Origin: a virus
Virus record (IMG/VR): IMGVR_UViG_3300042898_004255
Location: 1 to 55,909 of that record
DNA length: 55,909 nt
Strand: one strand, 5' to 3'
Shown here: positions 3,986 to 31,715 of the stretch, one piece after another
Numbering within the stretch: position 1 is the stretch's first letter
How the letters are laid out: each line of letters starts with the position of its first letter
Translations under genes and position numbers: made by a program
Notes under the pieces: model-generated
Told to the model about the DNA's origin: nothing
The model's database searches: none
The model's input: only the letters and a program-made list of their open reading frames with translations

Positions 3986-4536
3986 AAATTATTTTTTTTA
4001 ATATAATTAAATATATTTTTTGTTGTGTCAGATTCTAATTTAAACTCAATAAATGGTATATCATTTGTTTCTAACTTATTTTTAATTTGTTTATCTATCT
4101 CTTTCGCTTCATATATATTCTGAAATCTTCCATTTTCATTATATGTTTTATCGTCTCTTAATAACAAGATATTTAAACTATTATATTTTTTAAATAGTGA
4201 TAAAATAAAATCATCAAAAGAATCATCATAAAAAGATGATGGATAAGATGGTTGAATATCATAAAATTGTTTATAAATAATCCCTAGAATAATTGGGGAA
4301 TCAACAATAATGTATTTTACTTTATTATATAATCTACTAATATTTCTATGTTGATTACCAGTAATATAAAATTGGTCTTTTATTGCAGAATAATTTTCTT
4401 CCCACGCAACAATTTTTGGGAATTCAAATGTTAATTCTACATCCATGTGTTCTTTTTTCATTTCAGTGAATAAACCAGAAGATGTGGTGGATTTACCGAT
4501 TCCAGGACCACCAAAAAAATTTATAATTAAACTCAT
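3982..4536 (-). CDS. Phage P-loop NTPase (AAA_28-like)
   Basis: A 184-residue protein with an N-terminal Walker A motif FFGGPGIGKST (residues ~7-17) and an IVDSPIILG strand (~77-85) as Walker B-like. RDDKTYNENGRFQN (~126-139) resembles the lid of kinase-type NTPases. It resembles small phage ATPases annotated as AAA or kinase-like proteins. Function unknown; a nucleotide or nucleic-acid kinase is possible. It is the first gene of the minus operon ending at 3198. A TACTTTTG -7-like element lies just upstream at 4547-4554 (minus), with only a weak -33. Confidence 0.7.
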   Translation of the reverse strand: MSLIINFFGGPGIGKSTTSSGLFTEMKKEHMDVELTFEFPKIVAWEENYSAIKDQFYITGNQHRNISRLYNKVKYIIVDSPIILGIIYKQFYDIQPSYPSSFYDDSFDDFILSLFKKYNSLNILLLRDDKTYNENGRFQNIYEAKEIDKQIKNKLETNDIPFIEFKLESDTTKNIFNYIKKNNL

Positions 4537-10209: not shown

Positions 10210-11304
10210 ATGAATTTAAACGAACAAATATCAAGAATAAAAGAAGTAATGGGGTTAGTTAACGAACAAATAACCTCAACAGGTTATAATTTACCTCAAG
10301 GTCATACTATACCAACATGTACCCAAACGGGTTGTAAGGGAACTTATAGTGGTCCACAATTTAATATAATAGGTACAAATACGGATGGGACTGACAAATG
10401 GAATGACATTGCACATGACTACTCAAATACCATGAGTTATTATGTTGGTGATAAACTAAAAGAATTATATAAACAAGGAATTTATGTTAAAGTAGACCTT
10501 GAAATGATAAAAATGACGGCGTACCCAGTTAAAAATGAAGAAAGTGCAGATCCAACAAAAGTAACTATAGATATACCATTTATTAGAGTAAAAAATAAAT
10601 GCGAAGCATATACTTCATTTGACCATGCAGGTGGGTGGGGGCACTTGCGTATTGATTTAGACAACAGAAAAACACAATTATCATCTGCATTGTTACCTGG
10701 TGAAACATTAGATATTAGTACTTTGAATCAAACAAATAAAACTGATTATAAAACAAGTTTAAATGAGTACTGGATACAATGGAAAAATAAAACTACTCAA
10801 TCTGATTGTGCTAATAATTCAACTAATGTAACCCCACAAACAACAAGTGTAACACCTCAGAAAACTAATGTAACCCCACAAACAACAAGTGTAACACCTC
10901 AGAAAACTAATGTAACCCCACAAACAACAAGTAGTTCATCAAATGGTGAAGAGGTCAAAGTTACTGGTAATGGTATTATAGAGTTAAGAAAAAATATAAT
11001 AAGTAAATCATCAAATGCAAGTATTGATGTAAATAGTATTAAAGTTAATATGGATAAATTTGAAATTTCATATAAATCAGGTCCAACTAAAATAAATAAA
11101 ATTAGTCTTTTTACAAGAAACACTGGTGATGTTAAAGATAGTTCAGGATTTACCACCGCATTAGATAATGTTATATCCCAAAATAAATCTGATAATATTA
11201 CCGTTGAAGTTATTAAACGAGGTTCTATAACAAATTATCCATTCAATGACGGCACAAAAAAATTTAATACAACTCTATATTGGGCGGTTTTATTAATATA
11301 TTAA
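10210..11304 (+). CDS. Leader-bearing protein with Thr/Pro repeat linker
   Basis: A 364-residue protein that starts MNLNEQISRIKEVMGLVNEQ. The NEQISRIKEVM part closely resembles the C-terminal NEIRRIKEIM of the helical-repeat paralogues elsewhere in the window; a possible cleavage site is LVNE|Q. Residues ~20-200 form a globular domain with four Cys (IPTCTQTGCKG, NKCEAY, SDCANN). Then follow 2.6 copies of a 14-residue Thr/Pro repeat (NVTPQTTSVTPQKT) and a C-terminal domain (~245-364). No family recognised. The repeat looks like an inter-domain linker. Confidence 0.6.
   Translation: MNLNEQISRIKEVMGLVNEQITSTGYNLPQGHTIPTCTQTGCKGTYSGPQFNIIGTNTDGTDKWNDIAHDYSNTMSYYVGDKLKELYKQGIYVKVDLEMIKMTAYPVKNEESADPTKVTIDIPFIRVKNKCEAYTSFDHAGGWGHLRIDLDNRKTQLSSALLPGETLDISTLNQTNKTDYKTSLNEYWIQWKNKTTQSDCANNSTNVTPQTTSVTPQKTNVTPQTTSVTPQKTNVTPQTTSSSSNGEEVKVTGNGIIELRKNIISKSSNASIDVNSIKVNMDKFEISYKSGPTKINKISLFTRNTGDVKDSSGFTTALDNVISQNKSDNITVEVIKRGSITNYPFNDGTKKFNTTLYWAVLLIY
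10822..10932 (+). repeat. 42 bp tandem repeat, about 2.6 copies
   Basis: Unit starts ACTAATGTAACCCC at 10822, 10864 and 10906, with near-perfect identity between copies. It encodes the Thr/Pro linker NVTPQTTSVTPQKT. Copies are in frame, so number changes would alter only linker length. Confidence 0.9.
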
Positions 11305-24347: not shown

Positions 24348-24355
24348 GTTTTAAG

Positions 24356-24773
24356 TGGAGATGGCGGGAATTGAACCCGCGTCTTGTTTGTCATAGTATA
24401 AATAGACTACACGTTTATTCAATTAATTCATAACTGACAAATAGTTGGTTCCTATTTTGACATTGTTACCAATAACTGTGTCGAATTCACTTTCACCATT
24501 TTCATGGGTTTATAGGTAGAGTTCTGAACTAGACCTTTGACACTTTTGTGGTTGTATCACACCGTAGGGACTTCTGTTCCAAGGTATATGTCCACCGACC
24601 CGTTGTAGTTTTGCTTAAGCTACTTCTACGTTAGAAGTTGATAGTAATCCAACAACTTCCATGTTTTTGTAAACGTCTCCGTTTGATTGTTTCCACCATT
24701 TATTAAAGTCGTAGATGAAATCCGACTACGTGCCTACTTACAATATTAACACCAATCGATGCCTGACACCCCC
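24356..24773 (-). ncRNA. ssrA: Transfer-messenger RNA (tmRNA), phage-encoded
   Basis: The minus strand has a tmRNA tRNA-like domain: 5' end GGGGGTG (24773-24767) pairs with CATCTCC (24363-24357), with discriminator A at 24356 and no encoded CCA. The T-arm is GCGGG-TTCAATT-CCCGC. About 418 nt separates the ends, including a pseudoknot-like CGTAG...CTACG region and hairpin ACTTCT-AACGT-AGAAGT. The most likely tag frame resumes at GGA (about 24678), reads GDVYKNMEVV... and ends ...STSNVEVA then UAA, about 21 residues. This is longer than usual and lacks the common LAA end; the frame is inferred. It rescues stalled ribosomes and marks the nascent protein for proteolysis. It lies 18 nt after the 24792-25025 gene. 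Confidence 0.92.
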
Positions 24774-25060: not shown

Positions 25061-25741
25061 TCAAACAACTAAAGGAAAATGTTCCTTATATTTATTTTCA
25101 AATATTTCTTTAGTTGAAACCCATTCACTACTAATTTGACCAATTGACTTGTGTGTCACTTTAATTTTAGTTGTAACACCTATCTTAACACCATCTAAAT
25201 GATTTTCAATACAGATAGGTAAATCATAAAAATGGAAACCACTAAACTGTTCATTAAATTTATGTTTAATTCTACCTCTATGAACCATCATAAACAAACC
25301 ATCAACAACAACAACCTCTTTCAGTTTTTCAGAATAAGATTCTTTAGAGTAATAGTTAACGTGTCGTTTACCTTGATGTTCGTGTCCAACAATACCATAC
25401 ATAGATGTTCTGTCTTGCCACCATGTACCACTTAATAAATTATCTGTTCCAGCTAAACCAATAACCCCATATTCTGTATTGGTTTCAAATAATCTAATTA
25501 TTTTGGGTGTAATATTCTTTGTCTCCAAAATAAGATCATCGTGCATAAAAACAATAATATCATTTGTAGAGTCATTAAGTCCTTCGTTATAGATTTCTGG
25601 TAATGATGAAACTCCATCATTTTCGTAGACCAATATTTGTGTTTTAGGATGTGAAAACATTTTTTCCACATGTTTCAAATAATTGTCGTCAATTTTACGT
25701 GTTGATATGACTACACTAACTATTTCTTCACGATTCGACAT
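25061..25741 (-). CDS. Glycosyltransferase, GT-A type (family 2-like)
   Basis: A 226-residue protein. VSVVISTRKID (~8-18) is the first nucleotide-sugar strand. IYNEGLNDSTNDIIVFMHDDLIL (~50-72) holds the DxD-like HDD metal site. YGVIGLAGTDNL, then KEVVVVDGLFMMVHRGRI and FHFYDLPICIENH fit the acceptor half of 'glycosyltransferase-like' family proteins. It transfers a sugar from a nucleotide donor; the acceptor is unknown. The end of the phosphoesterase gene overlaps its start by 14 nt. Confidence 0.8.
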   Translation of the reverse strand: MSNREEIVSVVISTRKIDDNYLKHVEKMFSHPKTQILVYENDGVSSLPEIYNEGLNDSTNDIIVFMHDDLILETKNITPKIIRLFETNTEYGVIGLAGTDNLLSGTWWQDRTSMYGIVGHEHQGKRHVNYYSKESYSEKLKEVVVVDGLFMMVHRGRIKHKFNEQFSGFHFYDLPICIENHLDGVKIGVTTKIKVTHKSIGQISSEWVSTKEIFENKYKEHFPLVV

Positions 25742-26465
25742 TGGTGACTATTATTTTTTTATTTTCTTCAAAAACATCAAACACTAATGGTCGGTTTGAT
25801 GGACGATATTTTTCAGTACAAATTGACGCATTTGCGAAAATTGTATCGTACTCTTTAGTGACCCCGTATGATAAATGGATATGTCCAAAAACGTGTAATA
25901 AAGGTTTTATTTCATTAATCCTAAGTCTTAGTAATTCACACCCAACTTTTAAATTTTTAGGTGCTAAATCCAAAATACCATGTGCGGGACCGTGTGTAAC
26001 TAATATATTTGTATCATCGGGAATTAAATTCCATTTTTCTTTTAATTCACTTCCTAGTCTTGGAAGATTAAACGCCCAATTAAAAAATTCAGGTTGCCAT
26101 GGACTTCCCCATATTTTTAATGGTCTTGAAAACCCTAAATCTAATGTTACACTACTATCTTGAAGGTAGTGAACATTAGATTCTAATAAGTTTTCTTTAT
26201 TTAATAAATTTTTATACCAATCAATAATATCCTTATCTCGTGAATGTGAGAAGGTTTGGAATCCAAAATCATGATTACCCGCAATAAAAATTTTATTACT
26301 AAAACCTTTCAAAGATTTATACCAATTAATAAATTCTTCAATTTCTCTTGGTATACCTTTATTTGTACAATCACCAGAATGTATTAAAATATCACCTTCA
26401 GGTATGTTATGTAACATTTGGTCATGTAAACTATGTGTATCAGATACACAAACAATTCTAATCAT
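25728..26465 (-). CDS. Calcineurin-like metallophosphoesterase
   Basis: A 245-residue protein with the complete family signature: CVSDTHSLHDQM (D-x-H, residues ~6-17), ILIHSGDCTNKG (GD), FIAGNHDFGF (GNHD), ILVTHGPAHG (H) and HVFGHIHLSYG (GHxH). It binds two metal ions and hydrolyses phosphoesters; the substrate is unknown. Length fits the compact single-domain class. It lies just downstream of the large structured RNA on the same strand, with a hairpin (26496-26515) in the gap. Confidence 0.9.
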   Translation of the reverse strand: MIRIVCVSDTHSLHDQMLHNIPEGDILIHSGDCTNKGIPREIEEFINWYKSLKGFSNKIFIAGNHDFGFQTFSHSRDKDIIDWYKNLLNKENLLESNVHYLQDSSVTLDLGFSRPLKIWGSPWQPEFFNWAFNLPRLGSELKEKWNLIPDDTNILVTHGPAHGILDLAPKNLKVGCELLRLRINEIKPLLHVFGHIHLSYGVTKEYDTIFANASICTEKYRPSNRPLVFDVFEENKKIIVTNVES

Positions 26466-26495
26466 TGTATTATTTTTTACCCGTTATCTCCACCA

Positions 26496-26515
26496 CTTAC
26501 TTTTAATAAAGTAAG
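26496..26515 (-). other. Hairpin in the leader of the phosphoesterase gene
   Basis: CTTACTTT / AAAGTAAG, 8 bp with a 4 nt loop, directly after the U tract that ends the large RNA and 30 nt before the phosphoesterase ATG. It may insulate translation or protect the 5' end of a read-through or processed transcript. Confidence 0.45.
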
Positions 26516-26544
26516 AAAAAAAAATACCTGAGAATACAGTATTT
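26516..26544 (-). terminator. Terminator of the large structured RNA
   Basis: On the minus strand AAATAC...GTATTT (26544-26522) is followed by a U tract (26521-26516). The stem is short, so termination may be partial and allow read-through into the phosphoesterase gene. Confidence 0.65.
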
Positions 26545-27330
26545 AACGAAACTCTTTAGATGGATTATTGTTTCCCAATCATTTCCACTACCTTTTGAGT
26601 AGTAAGTTTCAGTTACAGTTAATTAGATTAACTAATCCTTAAGTCGTATTCTACTCTCTTGATAATCATTACTCTTCGAGATTGCGACCCCGATTAATCC
26701 TTGCGGGAGGAGAGAACTTTTTCAAAAATCACATCAGGATTGGGTCCCTTTGTGGCCAAGAACATCTCTTGACTATGTAGTAACCTATCAAACACGACTG
26801 ATGAGCACTTTTCCTTGTTTTATTTGTACTGTTAAAAGTCATAGATAACAATTTGGTTGTGGATATTGAAAGTAGCGGCTCATCAACCAGCCATGTCATC
26901 TTTTGAACGACACGATACTAAACTACTCTCTGAAGTCTCCCGACTTCCATACTTTTGGTTTTCTTCATAATTAAACTTTTGGTAAGTTTAACTAAGGATA
27001 ACGGCAGCACCACCTGTATTCGTTATCTTACCTTTCGGTTTTAAGACCACCATAATATTGAATCACGCAATTATATAATTGGAATTTATATTTCTTGCAT
27101 AGATCCTACGAGTTATTCTTATTGGTGTTCCCACCTCAACGAAACAACCACATTGCCTCGTTATTCGACCACTTTTCCTACAGTGTCACCCTCGGTACTA
27201 AAGGTCAAATAATATCTCGTTTGTCTACTCGAGTTCCCTTGCGGAAACCGCAACCCACTTAACCAAGTGAATCACTTTATACCACTTTCATGGTTTATTT
27301 TATGGACTATAGACCGCCCATATCTTAAAT

Positions 27331-27339
27331 TCAAAGAAC
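27331..27339 (-). promoter_or_regulatory. boxA-like antitermination site
   Basis: The minus strand reads GTTCTTTGA about 12-20 nt after the predicted start of the large RNA. It resembles the boxA found in Bacteroidota rRNA leaders, where Nus factors bind to stop premature termination of untranslated RNA. Assigned by similarity only. Confidence 0.5.
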
Positions 27340-27356
27340 TTTTTTTAAATCTTAAA

Positions 27357-27388
27357 CAAAGATAAGAATAAAAAATGATATTGTCAAA
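27357..27388 (-). promoter_or_regulatory. Strong Bacteroidota-type promoter of the large RNA
   Basis: On the minus strand TTTG (27388-27385), a 20 nt spacer and TATCTTTG (27364-27357). It is a full match to TTTG / TAnnTTTG; the start is expected near 27351. Confidence 0.8.
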
Positions 27389-29189: not shown

Positions 29190-31196
29190 TTAAAAAATTT
29201 TCATATGTTCATCTTCAAATTTCAAATTTATAACTTGATTTTCTTTTATATTACCTTTTAAAATTTCGTCAGACAAGAAATCTTCACATAAATTTTGAAT
29301 TATTCTTTTAACGGGACGAGCACCATATTCTTCCATGGTGTTAAGTTTTTCAATTTCATTAAGAACACTTTCATCAAAAGATATTTTATAATTTTTAACA
29401 GAAAGTCTATTCTCAAGTTTTTTAAGTTCAATTTCAATTATCTTTTTAATATCTTCTTTATTTAAGGTATTAAATAATACAATATCATCGATACGATTTA
29501 AAAACTCAGGATTAAATTGTTGTTTTAGAGATTTTTCAACAATAGATTTTTTAATTTGTTCTTTTTGACTTTCACTTGATGATGTAACGAATCCCAATCC
29601 TCCACCAAATTCAGATACTTTTTTGGCACCAACATTTGATGTCATAATTATTATGGTATTAGTAAAATTAACTTTTCTACCAAAAGAATCCGTAAGGTGA
29701 CCTTCATCCATTATTTGAAGAAGAATATTATAAACATCTTTATGTGCCTTTTCTATTTCATCGAATAAAATAACAGAAAAAGGATTGTTTTTAATTTTTT
29801 CTGTTAGTTGTCCACCTTCATCATGTCCAACATACCCTGGAGGTGAACCAATCAAACGAGAAAGATTGTGTTTTTCCATATATTCACTCATATCGACACG
29901 AATCATTTTATTTGAATCACCAAATATTAGTTCTGCGATAGTTTTTGCTAAATATGTTTTACCAACACCAGTTGAACCGATAAAAATAAAAGAACCTATT
30001 GGTCTATTATTTTCTTTAATACCTACTCTATTTCTTCTTATTGACCTAGATATTATTGAAATAGCATCTTTCTGACCAATTATCTTAGATGATAAATTTT
30101 CTTCTAATTTAATTAATTTTTCAGTTTCATTACTATCTAGTTTACTTATAGGTACTCCGGTCATATCTGATACCATTTGATACACATCATCTACTGTAAT
30201 AGGTATTAGACTATCTTTTTGTTTTTCAGACCATTTATTCTTTTCATCTTCAAGTTTAAGTAAAATCTTTCTTTCTTCATCTCTAAGTCTAGCTGCTTGT
30301 TCATAATCCTGTGTTTTTACCACCAATATTTTACTCTCCTTTATTTTTTCAGATTCTTTCTTTAAGTTTTCAATTATATCAGGGATTTTAATATTTGTTT
30401 TTTTATTTGACCCTAATTCATCTAAAACATCAATAGCCTTATCCGGAAATTGTCTATCTGTAATGTATTGTGATGATAAATTTACAATTGTTTCTATAAC
30501 ATCATCACCGTATTTGACTTTATGAAAATCTTGATACACATCTTTTAAGTTTCTCAGTATTAATACTGTCTCATCTTTAGTTGGTTCCTTTAATGTTATT
30601 TTTTGGAATCTTCTAACCAACGCAGAATCTTTTTCTATGTGTTTTTTATACTCATCAAAAGTTGTTGCACCAATACATTGTATTTCACCACGAGCGAGTG
30701 CGGGTTTCAGAATATTTGCAGCATCCATAGATCCACTAGCATTACCAGCACCAACCATTGTGTGTAACTCGTCAATAAAGATAATAATGTTTGGTTCGTT
30801 TTGTAATTCATTTAAAATCGCCTTTATTCTTTCTTCAAACTGTCCCCGATATTTTGTACCGGCAACTAAGGAAGTTAAATCTAATGATAAAATTCTTTTA
30901 TCGATTAAATTAGATGGACAATCTCCTTTAACAATTAATAATGCTAATTTTTCAACTAATACTGATTTACCCACACCAGAATCTCCAACAATGATTACAT
31001 TATTTTTTTTCTTTCTAGAAATAATCTGTGCGATTCTTCTAACTTCAGTATCTCTACCAATAACAGGGTCTATTTTCCCTTCTTCAGCCAATCTATTTAA
31101 ATCTCTAGAGAAATTATCTAAAATTGGTGTCCTAGAACCTTTTTTTCCTTTTTTAAAGGATGTTTGTTGACTTTCGTCGAAATAATCTACTGACAT
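29190..31196 (-). CDS. clpC: ClpC-type AAA+ unfoldase lacking the Clp_N domain
   Basis: A 668-residue protein. It starts directly before the D1 AAA module: GDSGVGKS (Walker A1), IIFIDELHTM (B1) and pore loop GTKYRGQFEER. A short middle region with a UVR-like motif (QDYEQAARLRDEERKILLKLE) follows, then D2: GSTGVGKT, VILFDEIEKAH, pore loop PPGYVGHDEGGQL, and the C-terminal YGARPVKRII. The ~140-residue adaptor-binding N domain of bacterial ClpC (usually ~810-850 aa) is missing. A GGGLGFVTSS loop in D2 is at the position of the ClpP-docking (I/L/V)GF tripeptide, so it may feed host ClpP. A TATATTTG -7-like box lies at 31249-31242 (minus). Confidence 0.93.
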   Translation of the reverse strand: MSVDYFDESQQTSFKKGKKGSRTPILDNFSRDLNRLAEEGKIDPVIGRDTEVRRIAQIISRKKKNNVIIVGDSGVGKSVLVEKLALLIVKGDCPSNLIDKRILSLDLTSLVAGTKYRGQFEERIKAILNELQNEPNIIIFIDELHTMVGAGNASGSMDAANILKPALARGEIQCIGATTFDEYKKHIEKDSALVRRFQKITLKEPTKDETVLILRNLKDVYQDFHKVKYGDDVIETIVNLSSQYITDRQFPDKAIDVLDELGSNKKTNIKIPDIIENLKKESEKIKESKILVVKTQDYEQAARLRDEERKILLKLEDEKNKWSEKQKDSLIPITVDDVYQMVSDMTGVPISKLDSNETEKLIKLEENLSSKIIGQKDAISIISRSIRRNRVGIKENNRPIGSFIFIGSTGVGKTYLAKTIAELIFGDSNKMIRVDMSEYMEKHNLSRLIGSPPGYVGHDEGGQLTEKIKNNPFSVILFDEIEKAHKDVYNILLQIMDEGHLTDSFGRKVNFTNTIIIMTSNVGAKKVSEFGGGLGFVTSSSESQKEQIKKSIVEKSLKQQFNPEFLNRIDDIVLFNTLNKEDIKKIIEIELKKLENRLSVKNYKISFDESVLNEIEKLNTMEEYGARPVKRIIQNLCEDFLSDEILKGNIKENQVINLKFEDEHMKIF

Positions 31197-31346: not shown

Positions 31347-31715
31347 ATGTTAACGATTTACAAAGACCCATTAAGAAATGTATTAGATACATTTTTTGAA
31401 AAAGAACCATCAAGAAATAACTCGGTTAAATTCCTTGAAAAGGACGATAAGTATTTCATATACCTTACAGTTCCTGGTTTAACTAAAGAAGATTTAACTA
31501 TTTCGGTTAAAGAAGAGTTATTAACTATTTCTTATAAGAAAGAAGAAAAAGATGATGATAATTTCATTTTTTTAAATTCTTTTAAGAAATCATATCTAAT
31601 ACCTAATGACATTTCTGAAAAAGATATTGGAGGAAGTGTTAAAAACGGAATTTTAGAGATTATTCTCCCGAAATCTAAAGAAAAAATTAAAGAAAGAATT
31701 ATATCTTTAAAATAG
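31347..31715 (+). CDS. Small heat-shock protein (Hsp20 family)
   Basis: A 122-residue protein. The alpha-crystallin domain spans ~28-110: FLEKDDKYFIYLTVPGLTKEDLTISVKEELLTISYKKEE, then FKKSYLIPNDISEKDIGGSVKNGILEIILPK, including the G-x-L-x-(I/V) motif (NGILEIILP). Both termini are short. It acts as an ATP-independent holdase. T4-like phages of several hosts carry an Hsp20 gene. It is divergent from the clpC-like gene, suggesting a shared proteostasis region. Confidence 0.93.
   Translation: MLTIYKDPLRNVLDTFFEKEPSRNNSVKFLEKDDKYFIYLTVPGLTKEDLTISVKEELLTISYKKEEKDDDNFIFLNSFKKSYLIPNDISEKDIGGSVKNGILEIILPKSKEKIKERIISLK

What the first reader, a model, noticed from the sequence alone, without database searches (positions are those of the whole stretch)
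26516..27351. Unannotated ~836 nt ornate structured RNA with its own promoter, boxA and terminator
A protein-free 0.9 kb gap in a gene-dense phage holds many stems capped by GAAA, GCAA, GGAA and GGGA loops on the minus strand. Its promoter is a full TTTG-N20-TATCTTTG match and a U-tract terminator closes it. GOLLD and ROOL are known classes of very large, phage-associated RNAs of similar size that form multimeric cages. Whether this is a divergent member or a new class cannot be told by eye. It is not near tRNA genes, but a tmRNA gene lies 1.7 kb away.
Basis: partly seen in the sequence, partly recalled or inferred. Interest (0 to 1): 0.92.

Follow-up and report, generated by a model that had tools for sequence, protein, structure and literature searches.

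The report
GOLLD cage RNA in Bacteroidota phage
This stretch of a phage genome encodes a full-length member of GOLLD, a known giant phage RNA whose solved example assembles into a hollow 14-copy cage; what looks new is that the gene starts with the same transcription-protecting signal (boxA) that bacteria use for ribosomal RNA, and that when phages carry both GOLLD and a tmRNA gene the two lie close together.

Summary
Window 26516-27351 (-) is a full-length GOLLD RNA gene. Rfam RF02032 matches 26525-26930 over its whole length (294 bits, cut-off 150). ROOL, OLE and HEARO do not match. The 5' half, which Rfam does not model, is also conserved. In 30 related phage sequences 161 of 214 pairs show double-sided changes, and 96.9% of cells pair against 39-43% when the structure is slid.

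The promoter (TTTG-N20-TATCTTTG) recurs in relatives. So does boxA: GTTCTTT[GA]A is in 30 of 33 non-redundant leaders, against 0.5% per shuffled sequence. Similar elements precede 16S rRNA in Bacteroidota genomes.

A tmRNA gene lies 1.75 kb downstream. In all 20 records found that carry both genes, tmRNA lies within 4 kb of GOLLD, often with no tRNA nearby. However, 46 of 50 phage tmRNA records lack GOLLD.

Verdict: a new member of a known kind. The boxA leader and tmRNA neighbourhood appear unreported in the papers I could search. Most likely it is a Nus-antiterminated RNA that assembles into the 14-mer cage and acts on translation components. That function is inferred.

The parts
26516..27351 (-). 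GOLLD RNA, predicted transcript of about 836 nt (start +/- a few nt)
   Evidence: Rfam RF02032 over the 3' half; alignable over almost the whole length with dozens of viral loci at about 68-79% DNA identity; covariation; z -4.9
26525..26930 (-). GOLLD 3' domain (ring domain of the published cage)
   Evidence: RF02032 model 1-416 of 416, 294.1 bits, gathering cut-off 150
26931..27320 (-). GOLLD 5' domain (cap domain of the published cage), not covered by Rfam
   Evidence: conserved in 30 non-redundant loci; helices 1-20 lie here and almost all covary
26809..26867 (-). A-rich variable linker, which by position corresponds to the disordered loop inside the cage
   Evidence: unpaired and length-variable in alignment A1; about nt 485-543 of the transcript, published linker nt 497-538 of env-38 (PMC12286853)
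26701..26705 (-). loop CGCAA, by position L21a, self-kissing bridge B8
   Evidence: loop dinucleotide switches GC to CG in L110, L117, L124, L130 and L131, the switch published for B8; mapping is by position
27357..27388 (-). Bacteroidota-type promoter TTTG-N20-TATCTTTG
   Evidence: exact match; same arrangement upstream of 31 of 33 non-redundant relatives
27331..27339 (-). boxA (GTTCTTTGA) in the RNA leader
   Evidence: GTTCTTT[GA]A in 30 of 33 leaders, 0.0047 per shuffled sequence; matching or near-matching element upstream of 16S in Bacteroidota
26516..26544 (-). 3'-terminal hairpin (P27 position) plus T tract, intrinsic terminator
   Evidence: sequence; helix 36 covaries. Many relatives have a T tract here or a separate downstream terminator
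24353..24773 (-). phage tmRNA gene, recurrent neighbour, probably a separate transcript
   Evidence: RF00023 74.2 bits; acceptor keeps G3-U70; tag frame GDVYKNMEVVGLLSTSNVEVA*; homologous tags in GOLLD-linked tmRNAs of other phages

Best explanation
It is a GOLLD RNA gene of a phage that infects Bacteroidota. The host sigma factor transcribes it from its own promoter (inferred from the promoter sequence). The boxA in the leader loads NusB/S10 and the other Nus factors onto RNA polymerase, as in rRNA operons. This lets polymerase make a long untranslated RNA without Rho termination and may hold the 5' end while the RNA folds (inferred from boxA conservation and from what boxA does in rrn operons). 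Transcription ends at the 3' hairpin and T tract. The RNA folds into a 5' cap domain and a 3' ring domain (shown here by covariation) and assembles into a closed 14-mer cage like env-38 GOLLD (inferred from homology). The cage most likely acts on translation components of the infected cell, such as ribosomes, tRNA or tmRNA (inferred, about 0.4). Estimates: GOLLD identity 0.98, boxA antitermination 0.85, cage 0.8.
For: Full-model Rfam match at 294 bits, about twice the cut-off. 65 GOLLD-positive viral records plus two 635-642 kb phage genomes found. Most are alignable over nearly the full RNA. 161 of 214 pairs have double changes, 0 of 500 shuffles reach that, and slid controls pair at 39-43% against 96.9%. 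The L21a GC/CG switch published as bridge B8 recurs here. Total length and linker position match env-38 (836 and about 485-543 here; 833 and 497-538 there). Promoter and boxA are conserved although the rest of the leader is not. boxA-like elements lie about 100-185 nt upstream of 16S in several Bacteroidota. The Clp protein's best relatives in bacterial genomes are Bacteroidota. Ribosome pull-down is cited in PMC12286853. tmRNA proximity.
Against: No RNA-seq and no structure of this RNA. The env-38 5' domain could not be compared directly. boxA is absent from one GOLLD group (L127-L129, L277), so it is not universal for GOLLD. A link to translation rests on neighbourhood and on one published pull-down.
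Confidence: 0.8

Rival explanations
1. GOLLD, tmRNA and tRNAs are near each other only because phages collect RNA genes in one late or variable region; GOLLD has no link to translation and the cage serves packaging, storage or another role.
For: Some loci are classic tRNA islands (L274-L276; G022, G005, G011). 46 of 50 phage tmRNA records have no GOLLD, and 28 of 44 GOLLD records have no tmRNA above cut-off, so neither needs the other.
Against: Nine of 15 GOLLD-tmRNA regions tested have no tRNA in the stretch fetched, and the window has none at all. All 20 co-occurring records place the pair within 4 kb.
Confidence: 0.45
2. The boxA match is a promoter-proximal sequence kept for another reason, such as ribosomal S10 titration, RNase processing or part of the 5' fold, and not for antitermination.
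For: boxA is followed in many relatives by AATATTGG, which runs into the first helix of the RNA; no functional data.
Against: Its distance to the RNA body varies from about 15 to 100 nt while the motif stays fixed. The same kind of motif heads 16S rRNA leaders.
Confidence: 0.12
3. A new class of ornate RNA, or a ROOL or OLE relative, rather than GOLLD.
For: The 5' half is not covered by any Rfam model.
Against: Full-length RF02032 match; no other family matches the region at E <= 0.1.
Confidence: 0.01

Closest known systems
GOLLD RNA (Rfam RF02032; Weinberg 2009, from own knowledge; cryo-EM of env-38, PMC12286853)
   Same: Whole 416-position 3' domain, variable linker, about 830 nt, phage location, GC/CG switch in the L21a position, covarying 5' domain of matching size
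   Different: Own Bacteroidota-type promoter and boxA leader; no tRNA nearby but a tmRNA; family had been described as near tRNA islands
ROOL RNA
   Same: Phage-borne, very large, forms an RNA cage (8-mer)
   Different: Unrelated sequence and secondary structure; no Rfam match here
rRNA operon boxA / Nus antitermination complex (PMC10250234, PMC4807359)
   Same: GTTC[AT]TTGA-type boxA in the leader of a long untranslated RNA
   Different: Phage RNA with a single gene; no experimental test of Nus dependence
GOLLD of uncultured huge phages LR745206 and LR756502 (635 and 642 kb)
   Same: GOLLD (287 and 275 bits), similar 5' domain, Clp-type AAA+ gene within 2-6 kb
   Different: Upstream flank reads like a tRNA 3' end; LR756502 lacks boxA; no tmRNA above cut-off

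Membership tests
GOLLD (RF02032) | Covariance model score above 150 bits over the conserved 3' domain | tested here: met
   294.1 bits, positions 1-416 of 416
GOLLD (RF02032) | 5' domain upstream of the 3' domain, total length about 800 nt or more | tested here: met
   about 420 nt of covarying 5' structure, total about 836 nt
GOLLD (RF02032) | 5' domain homologous to that of env-38 or the Lactobacillus brevis GOLLD | tested here: inconclusive
GOLLD (RF02032) | Intermolecular bridge B8, palindromic dinucleotide GC/CG in L21a | tested here: met
   GC in the window, CG in L110, L117, L124, L130 and L131; mapped by position, not by structure
GOLLD (RF02032) | 14-mer cage with D7 symmetry | not testable with these tools
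   needs mass photometry or cryo-EM
GOLLD (RF02032) | Phage or prophage location | tested here: met
   the record is classed as viral; relatives are viral contigs and huge phages; one exact 3'-domain pattern gave no match in bacterial genome contigs
ROOL (and OLE, HEARO) | Match to the family covariance model | tested here: not met
   no match at gathering score nor at E <= 0.1
boxA / Nus antitermination element | boxA sequence in the leader, conserved, matching host rrn boxA | tested here: met
   30 of 33 leaders; matching or near-matching element upstream of 16S in most of ten Bacteroidota genomes
boxA / Nus antitermination element | Binding of NusB-S10 and Rho resistance | not testable with these tools
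   needs experiment

The most novel reading that the evidence does not exclude
In a large group of Bacteroidota phages, GOLLD is expressed like ribosomal RNA, under a boxA-dependent Nus antitermination complex that also guides its folding, and works with a phage tmRNA carrying its own long tag (GNVxxxM..GL..TS.V.VA type) and a nearby Clp unfoldase, as a phage system that handles stalled ribosomes or tagged proteins during infection.
Probability: 0.2. Interest if true: 0.85.

Novelty: new member of a known kind. Interest (0 to 1): 0.47.

Why it matters
The function of GOLLD, one of the largest structured RNAs in bacteria and phages, is unknown although its cage structure is solved. A conserved rRNA-type boxA says how such a long untranslated RNA could be made intact, and predicts dependence on Nus factors that can be tested. 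A recurrent tmRNA neighbour, often without tRNAs, narrows the search for its role towards ribosome rescue. The family is also shown in two phage genomes above 630 kb and in a large set of phages with Bacteroidota-type promoters.

Tried and rejected
A new RNA class, ROOL, OLE, HEARO and introns: excluded by the full-length GOLLD match and no other family at E <= 0.1. A coding gap: only two ORFs of about 55 aa lie inside, neither followed up. Finding GOLLD in bacterial genomes by an exact 3'-domain pattern: no match, which speaks against close prophage copies but is a narrow test. The idea that tmRNA and GOLLD are an obligate pair was rejected: 46 of 50 phage tmRNA records lack GOLLD. The idea that boxA is universal in GOLLD was rejected: the L127-L129/L277 group lacks it. 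ARAGORN does not call the window tmRNA, but the covariance model, acceptor stem, T arm and tag frame support it. The sigma-70 hexamer scan was not informative (6 found, 4.4 expected) and its terminator scan missed the GOLLD hairpin.

Full report
OBSERVATION. The strand in question is the minus strand. Reading 5' to 3' it gives TTTG-N20-TATCTTTG (27388-27357), a short leader with GTTCTTTGA (27339-27331), about 800 nt of structured RNA, and a hairpin AAATACTG..CAGGTATT running into a T tract that ends at 26516. The only ORFs of 40 aa or more inside it are two of about 55 aa. The 836-nt RNA folds far better than shuffled sequence (z -4.9). There are no tRNAs in the window. A tmRNA gene lies at 24353-24773 (-).

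WHAT IT IS. Rfam 15 gives a single strong answer: RF02032 GOLLD, 294.1 bits against a cut-off of 150, model positions 1-416 of 416, at 26525-26930 (-). That model covers only the 3' domain. To test the rest, two degenerate patterns from the 3' domain were scanned over IMG/VR; 65 records carry GOLLD above cut-off. Two uncultured phage genomes of 635 and 642 kb found by blastn also do. Most of these align with the window RNA from near the boxA to the terminator at about 68-79% DNA identity, so the 5' half belongs to the same gene. In an alignment of 30 non-redundant full-length RNAs, RNAalifold predicts 210 pairs, 159 with compensatory change. I scored a structure made of these pairs plus the Rfam helix GAGAGUAG/CUACUUUC. 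It pairs 96.9% of cells, has 161 pairs with double changes (shuffled 103 +/- 4, 0 of 500 as high), and collapses to 39-43% when partners are slid by one to three columns. This is a folded RNA over its whole length, 5' domain included.

FIT TO THE SOLVED CAGE. The published env-38 GOLLD is 833 nt, with 5' cap domain 1-420, 3' ring domain 421-833 and disordered linker 497-538 (PMC12286853). Here the transcript is about 836 nt, the 3' domain starts at about nt 422, and the unpaired A-rich linker is about nt 485-543. The paper reports that loop L21a switches its inner dinucleotide between GC and CG, as expected for a self-kissing contact between half-shells (bridge B8). By position the corresponding loop here is CGCAA (26705-26701); in L110, L117, L124, L130 and L131 it is GTCGAA, the same GC to CG switch, found independently. 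I take this as support for cage formation, not proof. The mapping is by position only.

HOW IT IS MADE. All but two of 33 non-redundant relatives that share the 5' motif have a TTTG-N18..22-TANNTTTG promoter upstream. Between promoter and RNA body the leaders differ freely in sequence and length, except for GTTCTTT[GA]A, present in 30 of 33. Markov-shuffled leaders hold it in 0.47% of cases. Sequences are related, so 30 is not 30 independent events, but the surrounding leader is not conserved. The distance from promoter to boxA ranges from about 15 to over 100 nt. Reading upstream of 16S rRNA in ten Bacteroidota genomes gave GTTCATTGA, GTTCTTTGA, GTTCATTGAC, GATCTTTGA, GTTCTTTAA and GTTCATAGAC forms, typically 100-185 nt before 16S. 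So the GOLLD leader carries a host-type rrn boxA. In E. coli, boxA is necessary and sufficient to recruit the Nus complex, which blocks Rho termination, and it has been proposed to tether the 5' end and assist RNA folding (PMC10250234, PMC4807359). An 836-nt untranslated phage RNA has the same two needs. No paper in the library holds both 'GOLLD' and 'boxA'. The element is not universal: the L127-L129/L277 group lacks the promoter and boxA.

THE tmRNA NEIGHBOUR. Of 44 GOLLD-bearing records searched, 16 (window included) hold a tmRNA above the Rfam cut-off. In every one it lies 0.1-3.8 kb downstream of GOLLD, on either strand. As a control, 50 phage records found by a tmRNA pattern were searched for GOLLD: only 4 have it, and in those the tmRNA again lies within 2.6 kb, three times upstream and once downstream. 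That makes 20 of 20 co-occurring records within 4 kb. Counting each near-identical group once (16 records) and assuming random placement, the product of single-record chances for a 4.5-kb window each side is about 10^-12.6. Shared ancestry makes the true figure weaker. Nine of the 15 GOLLD-tmRNA regions tested have no tRNA in the fetched stretch, so this is not simply the known tRNA-island habit; three of the control records, however, are classic tRNA islands (L274-L276). The tmRNAs look functional: G3-U70 in the acceptor of the window copy, T arm, and a tag frame. Window tag: GDVYKNMEVVGLLSTSNVEVA*. Others: GNVYKNMEIAGLLATSNVEVA*, GNVLNKMETLGLVRGSEVTVA*, GNVINKLSAVGLVRTSEKVAVA*, ANVYNNMEIAGVLATSKVAA* (all but the window's and the last read by eye from the alignment). 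These are long and alike and, to my knowledge, unlike the short ALAA-type tags of Bacteroidota. In G011 and G019 an SmpB gene follows the tmRNA directly. No paper in the library that holds both 'GOLLD' and 'tmRNA' appears to link the two; two of the five such papers were read by passage.

HOST AND PHAGE. Bacteroidota is inferred from the promoter type, from boxA, and from the Clp ATPase, whose best relatives in bacterial genomes are Bacteroidota. The order GOLLD, metallophosphoesterase, glycosyltransferase is kept in several relatives at 43-74% protein identity, so GOLLD is a stable resident of this lineage.

FUNCTION. GOLLD's function is unknown. Published facts are cage assembly, raised expression at lysis, and ribosome binding in pull-down (cited in PMC12286853). 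Adding the boxA leader and the tmRNA neighbourhood, my best guess (about 0.4) is a role with translation components in infected cells. The main rival, that RNA genes merely cluster, is about as likely (0.45).

VERDICT. Ordinary as to identity: a new member of GOLLD. Two features seem new within the papers I could search and are worth following: the conserved rRNA-type boxA and the recurrent tmRNA neighbour.

Noticed in passing
24353-24773 (-): Phage tmRNA missed by ARAGORN, with a long tag GDVYKNMEVVGLLSTSNVEVA*; GOLLD-linked tmRNAs of other phages carry homologous long tags that end in VEVA, VTVA, VAVA or VAA instead of ALAA.
   Followed up: partly
26488-26515 (-): Hairpin CTTACTTT-ATT-AAAAGTAAG followed by TGGTGGAG directly 3' of the GOLLD T tract; the same hairpin plus TGGTGG recurs with compensatory changes in L075, L093, L096, L098, L099 and L100. 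Role unknown.
   Followed up: no
29190-31196 (-) and 31347-31715 (+): ClpB/ClpC-type double AAA+ ATPase whose Pfam hits start at the first AAA+ domain (no Clp N-domain found), next to an Hsp20; Clp genes also lie 2-6 kb from GOLLD in LR745206 and LR756502.
   Followed up: partly
25061-26465 (-): Metallophosphoesterase and glycosyltransferase genes between GOLLD and tmRNA, kept in order and strand in several relatives.
   Followed up: partly
L022 (IMGVR_UViG_3300020161_001956), 4081-4110 (-) and 10411-10440 (+): Two GOLLD copies of equal score in opposite orientation on one 14.5-kb contig, perhaps an inverted terminal repeat or an assembly artefact.
   Followed up: no
L149 and L150 (G011, G019): SmpB gene immediately downstream of the phage tmRNA near GOLLD, a phage-encoded rescue pair.
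   Followed up: no
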